A stretch of 64,000 nucleotides of DNA from Burkholderia ambifaria AMMD (GTDB lineage Bacteria; Pseudomonadota; Gammaproteobacteria; Burkholderiales; Burkholderiaceae), in NCBI RefSeq assembly GCF_000203915.1, contig NC_008392.1, positions 186,001 to 250,000 on the forward strand, given 5' to 3'. Of the stretch, positions 35,335 to 36,630 are shown one piece after another (position 1 is the first letter of the stretch; each line of letters begins with the position of its first letter). The notes under the pieces were generated by a model that searched no databases, had not been told where the DNA came from, and saw nothing but the letters and a program-made list of their open reading frames with translations. The translations under genes and the position numbers were made by a program.

Positions 35335-36630
35335 TCAGGCGAACGCCTCCGCATGTGCGTAAATGGGGAACTGGCTGCACAGGTCGCGCACGCGGGTCCG
35401 CACCGACCGTTCGACCGCCTGGTCGCCACTCGGATCGCGCTCGAGCGCCGCCAGCACGTCGACGATCATTTCGCCGATCTGCTCGAACTGCGCGGGCCCG
35501 AAGCCGCGCGTGGTGCCGGCCGGCGTGCCGAGCCGGATGCCGGACGTGACCATCGGGTTTTCCGTATCGAACGGAATCCCGCTCTTGTTGCAGGTGATGC
35601 CGGCGCGCTCCAGCGCCTTCTCGGCTTGCGCGCCGGTCATGCGCCGCGAACGCAGGTCGACCAGCAGCAGATGGTTGTCGGTGCCGCCCGTGACGAGCGA
35701 GAGGCCACCGGCCGTCAGCACGCTGGCGAGCGTCTGCGCGTTGCGCAACACCCGGTCGATATGGCGGGCGAACTCCGGGCGCAGCGCCTCGGCGAACGCC
35801 ACGGCCTTGCCGGCGACGACATGCATCAGCGGGCCGCCCTGCAACCCCGGAAATACCGCCGCATCGATCTGCTTCGCGAGCTCGGCATGGTTCGTCAGGA
35901 TGAAGCCGCCGCGCGGGCCGCGCAGCGTATTGTGCGTAGTGGACGTCACGACGTCGGCGAACGGCACCGGATTCTGATGCCGGCCGGCCGCGACGATGCC
36001 GGCGAAATGCGCGATGTCGACCATCAGCTTCGCATCGACGCTGTCCGCGATCTCGCGGAACGCGGCGAAGTCGAGCGCACGCGGATACGCCGAGTAACCA
36101 GCGATGATCAGTTTCGGACGATGCCGCCCGGCGAGCCGGCGCACGTCGTCGTAATCGATGCGCAGCGTGTCCGGGCTCACGCCGTACTGCACCGCGTTGA
36201 ACCACTTCCCCGACAGCACCGGCCGCGCGCCGTGCGTGAGATGGCCGCCCGCGTCGAGCGACATGCCCATCACCGTGTCACCGGGCTTGACGAGCGCGAG
36301 CATCGCCGCGCCGTTGGCCTGCGCGCCCGAGTGCGGCTGGACGTTCGCATGCGCGGCGTCGAACAGTGCGCACGCGCGGTCGATCGCGAGCGACTCGATC
36401 CGGTCGACATGGTCGCAGCCGCCGGAGTACCGCCGGGACGGATAGCCTTCCGCGTACTTGTTCGTCAGCACGGTCCCCTGGGCTTCCAGCACCGCCGCCG
36501 ACGCGATGTTTTCAGACGCGATCAGTTCGATCTGGCTCTGCTGACGACGCAGCTCCAGTGCGATCTCCGATGCGATCACCGGATCCCGGCTCTGGAGCGT
36601 TTCGGAAAAAAAGCGGGCGTTCTCGTTCAC
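35335..36630 (-). CDS. Serine hydroxymethyltransferase-like protein lacking the PLP lysine
   Basis: A 431-residue protein clearly homologous to GlyA along its length: IELIASENIAS, NKYAEGYPSRRYSGGCDHVD, NVQPHSGAQAN, GGHLTHG, VDIAHFAGIVAAG, LQGGPLMHV and TSGIRLGTPA are conserved. The Schiff-base lysine position (E. coli K229, in TTHKTL) is Asn: the sequence is TTHNTLRGPRGG with N234, codon AAT. The active-site Tyr65 equivalent is Ser (S69). D205 and H208, which hold the PLP ring, remain. Normal serine/glycine interconversion is therefore doubtful. The start is GTG at 36630 with GGAGTCACCAA upstream. It lies between the substrate-binding protein and DapA-family genes. The rest of the reading frame looks intact. 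Confidence 0.85.
   Translation of the reverse strand: MNENARFFSETLQSRDPVIASEIALELRRQQSQIELIASENIASAAVLEAQGTVLTNKYAEGYPSRRYSGGCDHVDRIESLAIDRACALFDAAHANVQPHSGAQANGAAMLALVKPGDTVMGMSLDAGGHLTHGARPVLSGKWFNAVQYGVSPDTLRIDYDDVRRLAGRHRPKLIIAGYSAYPRALDFAAFREIADSVDAKLMVDIAHFAGIVAAGRHQNPVPFADVVTSTTHNTLRGPRGGFILTNHAELAKQIDAAVFPGLQGGPLMHVVAGKAVAFAEALRPEFARHIDRVLRNAQTLASVLTAGGLSLVTGGTDNHLLLVDLRSRRMTGAQAEKALERAGITCNKSGIPFDTENPMVTSGIRLGTPAGTTRGFGPAQFEQIGEMIVDVLAALERDPSGDQAVERSVRTRVRDLCSQFPIYAHAEAFA

What the first reader, a model, noticed from the sequence alone, without database searches (positions are those of the whole stretch)
35335..36630. SHMT homologue with the catalytic lysine replaced by asparagine
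The PLP Schiff-base Lys (E. coli K229) is Asn234 in TTHNTL, codon AAT, and the Tyr65 equivalent is Ser69. The ring-holding Asp and His and the rest of the fold are intact, with no frameshift. Double loss of catalytic residues in an otherwise conserved protein points to a new role: non-covalent PLP/PMP chemistry, folate or substrate binding, or a regulatory subunit. It is embedded in a betaine-type catabolic island.
Basis: partly seen in the sequence, partly recalled or inferred. Interest (0 to 1): 0.75.

Follow-up and report, generated by a model that had tools for sequence, protein, structure and literature searches.

The report
Operon enzyme that keeps losing catalysis
A spare copy of a common serine/glycine enzyme in a Burkholderia nutrient-uptake operon has lost its key catalytic lysine in this strain; nearly all relatives examined keep the lysine, but several other lineages have separately damaged the same active site while the gene stays whole.

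Summary
Window 35335-36630 (minus strand) encodes a full-length SHMT-family protein with Asn at the PLP lysine, Ser at the Tyr65 equivalent and, in addition, Ser at the E. coli Asn347 position. What I found instead is recurrent erosion. 20 of 241 rows change at one of 19 published active-site positions, including two other losses of Lys. It is lineage-specific: 3 of 648 changes in the remaining 117 sequences (29.9 expected if uniform), 8 of 135 in the ubonensis-like group (6.2), 6 of 35 in the ambifaria-like clade (1.6). In 34 copies of the 70% paralogue none of the 19 sites varies; the neighbouring DapA-like enzyme keeps six catalytic-site residues in 121 of 121. All 17 close operon copies in 65 genus genomes retain an open SHMT frame. 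The genome has three other SHMTs with complete active sites, and a distant version of the operon has no SHMT. Most likely this is a redundant SHMT made catalytically dead by missense change under relaxed, perhaps reversed, selection. Activity was not measured.

The parts
35335..36630 (-). SHMT-family gene of the operon (P0001, 431 aa), catalytic Lys replaced by Asn
35929..35931 (-). codon AAT, Asn234, at the PLP Schiff-base lysine position (E. coli K229)
36424..36426 (-). codon TCC, Ser69, at the E. coli Tyr65 position
35581..35583 (-). codon AGC, Ser350, at the E. coli Asn347 position (folate-side role recalled)
34288..35175 (-). DapA/N-acetylneuraminate-lyase-type (DHDPS) lyase; GTTGE, LYNFP and MKES motifs intact
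32950..34281 (-). FAD-dependent amino-acid oxidase-like protein (DAO family); GGGITG motif intact
31440..32933 (-). aldehyde dehydrogenase (PuuC/KauB-like), catalytic Cys and Glu motifs intact
30021..31037 (-). LysR regulator, nearest models GcvA and choline-sulfate type, both under their cut-offs
36753..37655 (-). OpuAC-type (betaine/choline) ABC substrate-binding protein
37785..38993 (-). ABC permease (ProW/ChoW-like); listed ORF start overlaps the ATPase gene, true start uncertain
38669..39958 (-). ABC ATPase (ProV-like)

Best explanation
This is an accessory serine hydroxymethyltransferase, a paralogue (70%) of another SHMT of the genome, carried inside a transporter-lyase-oxidase-dehydrogenase operon for a betaine-like amine. 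Inferred original role: moving one-carbon units or glycine produced by that catabolism. In this strain missense changes should have made it unable to do SHMT chemistry: without the lysine no internal aldimine can form and no lysine can release product; the substrate-contacting tyrosine and a folate-side asparagine are also gone. The cell probably does not need it because three other SHMTs have complete active sites. Selection on its active site has been lifted in several Burkholderia lineages, while the open frame is kept, probably because a stop or frameshift would be polar on the downstream lyase, oxidase and dehydrogenase genes, or because the losses are recent. Shown: the residues, their distribution, the complete paralogues and neighbours, the retained frames. 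Inferred: lost activity, redundancy as the cause, polarity or recency as the reason the frame is kept.
For: Lys in 238 of 241 orthologue rows, Asn in 2 (the window's among them), Thr in 1. Other lineages hit the same pocket: 24 of 241 rows change at one of 27 family-invariant active-site positions of my own list, 20 of 241 at one of 19 positions named in a TthSHMT structure paper. Fitch steps at those 19 positions against uniform expectation: ambifaria-like 6 of 35 (1.6 expected), ubonensis-like 8 of 135 (6.2), other Bcc-like 12 of 424 (19.6), remainder 3 of 648 (29.9). Nearest paralogue: none of the 19 sites varies in 34 copies while 58 of 412 sites vary. The own genome's other three SHMTs match the consensus at 19, 18 and 18 of the 19 positions; the one difference is the Ser/Ala at 103. 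DapA keeps six catalytic-site residues in 121 of 121; DapA, ALDH and DAO motifs are whole in 17 of 17 operon copies, the SHMT's 19 positions in 13 of 17. All 17 close DAO copies (83% or more) in 65 genus genomes have an open SHMT beside them. A homologous operon in another family of the order has no SHMT. SHMT dN/dS for one eroded pair is 0.277 against 0.08-0.13 for its neighbours.
Against: Mean pairwise dN/dS of the gene is about 0.13, and 0.277 between two eroded copies, well under 1, so it is not a plain pseudogene. The ambifaria-like excess at the active site (6 against 1.6 expected; 5 of 28 against 1.29 without the window's own protein) is more than relaxation predicts; but with three outgroups added it is 5 of 65 (P 0.18) without P0001 and 5 of 73 (P 0.25) with it. 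The DAO gene of this strain also has many private replacements (13 replacement, 21 silent), so relaxation may not be confined to the SHMT. All 16 genomes with the operon hold at least one other SHMT-like match, so redundancy alone does not tell eroded from whole lineages. No activity was measured.
Confidence: 0.6

Rival explanations
1. Adaptive inactivation: SHMT activity from this copy is harmful when the operon is on (for example by draining folate one-carbon units or glycine), so active-site missense alleles are favoured repeatedly while the frame is kept for the downstream genes.
For: In the ambifaria-like clade (7 distinct sequences) the published active-site positions change more often than a uniform spread gives (6 of 35, expected 1.6, P 0.005; 5 of 28, P 0.008, without P0001). 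Position 69 carries Ser, Asn and Cys in close relatives.
Against: Few sequences, weakly supported trees, P 0.18-0.25 once outgroups are added. The groups were cut after the damaged rows were known. The database is clustered, so frequencies are not population frequencies. No fitness data.
Confidence: 0.2
2. Retained pseudoenzyme: the dead protein is kept for binding (PLP, folate, glycine or the operon's substrate) or for mixed dimers with the other SHMTs.
For: All 17 close operon copies keep a full open frame; mean dN/dS about 0.13; 0.277, not 1, between two eroded copies.
Against: Damage differs between lineages (Ser, Asn, Cys, Asp at 69; Asn, Thr at 234; loss of the ring-stacking His in three rows), with no common alternative site; 221 of 241 rows are unchanged at the 19 positions.
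Confidence: 0.12
3. Sequencing or assembly error.
For: Asn234 with an otherwise normal motif is found in none of the 120 best homologues; the one other Asn row (P0090) also has His233 changed.
Against: The assembly is rated 100% complete in four contigs. Ser69 is shared by other records (P0002, P0004), and other changes at the same residues occur in further records.
Confidence: 0.03
4. Lysine-independent new chemistry in this protein.
For: Ring-holding Asp and His and the carboxylate Arg are intact.
Against: The three proteins without Lys (P0001, P0090, P0124) have different second changes; no lineage shows a shared set with this one.
Confidence: 0.03

Closest known systems
Serine hydroxymethyltransferase (PF00464; NCBIfam PRK00011; best solved chain 3ecd_A, 'Serine hydroxymethyltransferase 2')
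   Same: Full-length match over residues 6-424 (667 bits); PLP-ring Asp/His and carboxylate Arg present
   Different: No PLP lysine, no Tyr65 equivalent, Asn347 equivalent replaced
The genome's own 70% SHMT paralogue (G000 C3:1445304-1446566)
   Same: Closest paralogue in the genome
   Different: Complete at the 19 active-site positions; lies about 8 kb from a gene 42% identical to the GbcA-like protein of L165
Glycine betaine / quaternary amine demethylation clusters that also hold an SHMT (association recalled)
   Same: OpuAC-type transporter; distant operon version followed by GbcA/GbcB-like genes
   Different: None of the window genes scanned beside the SHMT is a Rieske gene (9 proteins); a DapA-like lyase, a DAO and an ALDH are there instead

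Membership tests
Serine hydroxymethyltransferase (functional enzyme) | SHMT fold/profile over the full length | tested here: met
   PF00464 501 bits, PRK00011 596 bits; 667 bits to 3ecd_A
Serine hydroxymethyltransferase (functional enzyme) | Schiff-base lysine | tested here: not met
   Asn234
Serine hydroxymethyltransferase (functional enzyme) | Substrate-contacting tyrosine (E. coli Y65, Tth Y61) | tested here: not met
   Ser69; role of Tth Tyr61 from passages of PMC10397204
Serine hydroxymethyltransferase (functional enzyme) | General base Glu, ring-stacking His, ring-binding Asp, substrate Arg | tested here: met
   E61, H130, D205, R366; roles of the Tth equivalents from passages
Serine hydroxymethyltransferase (functional enzyme) | Serine/glycine interconversion with tetrahydrofolate | not testable with these tools
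   needs purified protein
Conserved pseudoenzyme family | Catalytic loss fixed across orthologues | tested here: not met
   238 of 241 orthologue rows keep Lys
Ordinary pseudogene | Stops, frameshifts, dN/dS near 1 | tested here: not met
   0 of 17 genus copies with a stop; SHMT mean pairwise dN/dS 0.13

The most novel reading that the evidence does not exclude
An operon-borne SHMT is being inactivated again and again by active-site missense changes in natural Burkholderia lineages because its activity is a liability there, while the dead protein or its reading frame remains useful: parallel, selected conversion of an enzyme into a pseudoenzyme, caught at many stages.
Probability: 0.15. Interest if true: 0.7.

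Novelty: new variant of a known kind. Interest (0 to 1): 0.4.

Why it matters
SHMTs are strictly conserved PLP enzymes. A close paralogue whose active site is repeatedly lost in one genus, beside an otherwise intact operon, gives a natural series of whole, partly damaged and probably dead copies. It shows that an SHMT annotation in these genomes cannot be taken as SHMT activity, and it lets one ask directly whether enzymes are lost by neglect or by selection.

Tried and rejected
Fixed new role for all orthologues: rejected, Lys is kept in 238 of 241 rows. The first enrichment test, over 237 distinct sequences with my own 27-position list, showed no excess at the active site (1.33 against 1.48 steps per site, permutation P 0.59). 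I then split by lineage and replaced my list, made after I had seen variants, by 19 residues named in passages of PMC10397204. The lineage groups were cut by identity (>=94.9% to P0001; 87.5-94.9%; >=86.9% to L049; rest) after I had seen which rows were damaged, so the P values are descriptive. The rest group holds one eroded type too (P0225 and L048, E61Q and H130Q), besides E61K in P0197. In 'core' was defined as invariant in the control paralogue, so its zero there is by construction; the fair control is. The control copies were 34 of the 61 paralogues at 69-71% listed.

Strain-level control with DapA: the search returned clustered representatives (one stands for 173 sequences), so it controls only above strain level. 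The plasmid search gave 14 records, none named B. ambifaria. The order-wide search with the DAO found matches in 8 of 300 genomes, the own one included; of these I read two further regions, G169 and G222. A 70% partial DAO at a contig end (G050:C188) was not read. Substrate of the operon: hydroxyproline betaine or similar was considered (oxidase + DapA-like lyase + aldehyde dehydrogenase recalls the hydroxyproline route) but not tested.

Literature: eight searches of the held library, three of which found no paper and one of which listed 12 of 41 (57). None of the titles and abstract starts listed concerns a natural SHMT lacking its lysine or such erosion in Burkholderia; full texts were not read. 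PMC10211241 (passages) names SHMT2 only as partner of a pseudo-ligase; PMC3404986 (passages) concerns K229Q of pyridoxal kinase, not of SHMT. The behaviour of E. coli SHMT lysine mutants is recalled only. No structure prediction was run: the best solved chain aligns over 419 residues.

Full report
The minus-strand frame 35335-36630 is a complete SHMT-family protein of 431 residues with Asn234 in place of the PLP lysine and Ser69 in place of the Tyr65 equivalent; E. coli K-12 GlyA was fetched and aligned to fix the numbering. A third residue, at the Asn347 position, is Ser; it is Asn in 239 of 241 orthologue rows. The ring-binding Asp, the His stacked on the ring, the general-base Glu and the carboxylate Arg are intact (roles from passages of PMC10397204).

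The genome is a 7.5 Mb, four-contig assembly; the window lies on a 1.28 Mb contig. Of the six proteins at 96-97% identity in the first search, five are named Burkholderia ambifaria and one B. contaminans, flagged unverified. The genome has three other SHMTs over the family cut-off, at 70, 57 and 56% identity, plus one weak match under it; the three agree with the orthologue consensus at all 19 active-site positions used below except a Ser/Ala difference at 103 in two.

The operon around the gene is constant: ABC ATPase, permease, OpuAC-type binding protein, SHMT, DapA-like lyase, FAD oxidase, aldehyde dehydrogenase, LysR regulator. The 16 further copies fetched from the genus have the same order; in two of them (L045, L051) the contig ends before the regulator. 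In 65 genus genomes there are 17 close copies of the oxidase (83% or more) in 16 genomes, the own one included, and all 17 have an open, full-length SHMT beside them. A more distant copy in another family of the order has the transporter, DapA-like and oxidase genes with no SHMT between or elsewhere in the 19 kb read, and further on GbcA- and GbcB-like genes. This supports a betaine-type substrate and shows that the SHMT is an optional part.

Orthologues decide the main question. I assembled 241 rows: 225 proteins (the window's own and those listed by two searches) and 16 genus loci; 237 differ, and some genus loci are probably the same genes as listed proteins, read with another first residue. 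Lys is present in 238, Asn in 2, Thr in 1; the Tyr65 position is Tyr in 229, Ser in 6, Asp in 4, Asn in 1, Cys in 1. So the state in this window is not a family trait. Each search listed only the best 120 of 7999 scored proteins, and the database is clustered, so these are not population frequencies.

Yet the changes are not scattered. Twenty of 241 rows change at one of 19 residues that passages of a Thermus SHMT structure paper (PMC10397204) name as active-site contacts. Proteins named B. ambifaria, B. vietnamiensis, B. multivorans, B. anthina and B. ubonensis each include damaged forms, with different residues hit. Counting minimum changes per column, the 19 positions carry 3 of 648 changes in the remaining 117 sequences (Paraburkholderia, Trinickia, some Burkholderia and unnamed; 29.9 expected if uniform), 12 of 424 in 105 other Bcc-like sequences (19.6), 8 of 135 in 8 ubonensis-like (6.2) and 6 of 35 in 7 ambifaria-like (1.6, P 0.005) (group sizes). 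Without the window's own protein the last figure is 5 of 28 (1.29, P 0.008), but with three outgroups added it is 5 of 65 (P 0.18), or 5 of 73 (P 0.25) with the window's protein. The safe reading is that constraint on the active site, very strong elsewhere, is weak or absent in these lineages; positive selection is only suggested.

Controls. In 34 copies of the nearest paralogue 58 of 412 sites vary and none of the 19. The DapA-like neighbour keeps six catalytic-site residues in 121 of 121 sequences, nine of them named B. ubonensis. Motifs of DapA, ALDH and DAO are whole in 17 of 17 operon copies, against 13 of 17 for the SHMT's 19 positions. Mean pairwise SHMT dN/dS is 0.13, similar to the neighbours (0.08-0.16); between two eroded copies it is 0.277 against 0.08-0.13 for their neighbours. 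Private replacements in the window copy are 11 against 19 silent, versus 13 against 62 summed over four relatives (P 0.04), but the DAO gene shows a like tendency, 13:21 against 11:38 (P 0.14).

Conclusion. The finding is a strain-level, probably dead allele of a redundant operon SHMT, one of several separate active-site losses in this orthologue group. Loss of SHMT activity follows from the chemistry of PLP enzymes (established knowledge; not assayed). Why the frame survives, by polarity, recency or residual function, is open.

Noticed in passing
L165 (G169:C1:161000-180000), 4831-17910: Distant version of the operon without SHMT, followed by a second binding protein, a chemotaxis receptor, a LysR regulator and GbcA/GbcB-like genes; the GbcA-like one scores under its family cut-off (476 of 670 bits), the GbcB-like one over it, so the substrate may be another quaternary amine.
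   Followed up: partly
L166, L167: Diverged copies of a DAO + DapA-like + ALDH trio (41%, 44%, 56%) recur; L167 holds a second trio (38%, 28%, 56%). It looks like a general catabolic module.
   Followed up: no
P0051, P0066, P0068: Proteins named B. vietnamiensis or unclassified Burkholderia lack the PLP-stacking His in the alignment (a gap there) and also have Ser at position 69.
   Followed up: partly
L049 2509-3720 and L047 12702-13337: A second SHMT (56%) lies beside the operon in two genomes. In L049, where the operon copy is eroded, two motifs of the second one look normal; the pattern TTH.TL was not found in it and its lysine was not checked. The L047 copy is cut by the end of the fetched contig.
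   Followed up: partly
G000 C3:1436327-1446566: The genome's 70% SHMT paralogue lies about 8 kb from a gene 42% identical to the GbcA-like protein of L165, fitting a betaine demethylation cluster.
   Followed up: no
L040, L041: One genome (G019) carries two copies of the whole operon on different contigs.
   Followed up: no
window 32950-34281: The FAD oxidase of this strain also has many private replacements (13 replacement, 21 silent) compared with four relatives.
   Followed up: no
window 41051-45865, plus strand: ORFs next to the operon look by eye like an AMP-dependent ligase and ketoacyl-synthase III-like proteins, perhaps a small biosynthetic cluster; not tested (translations).
   Followed up: no
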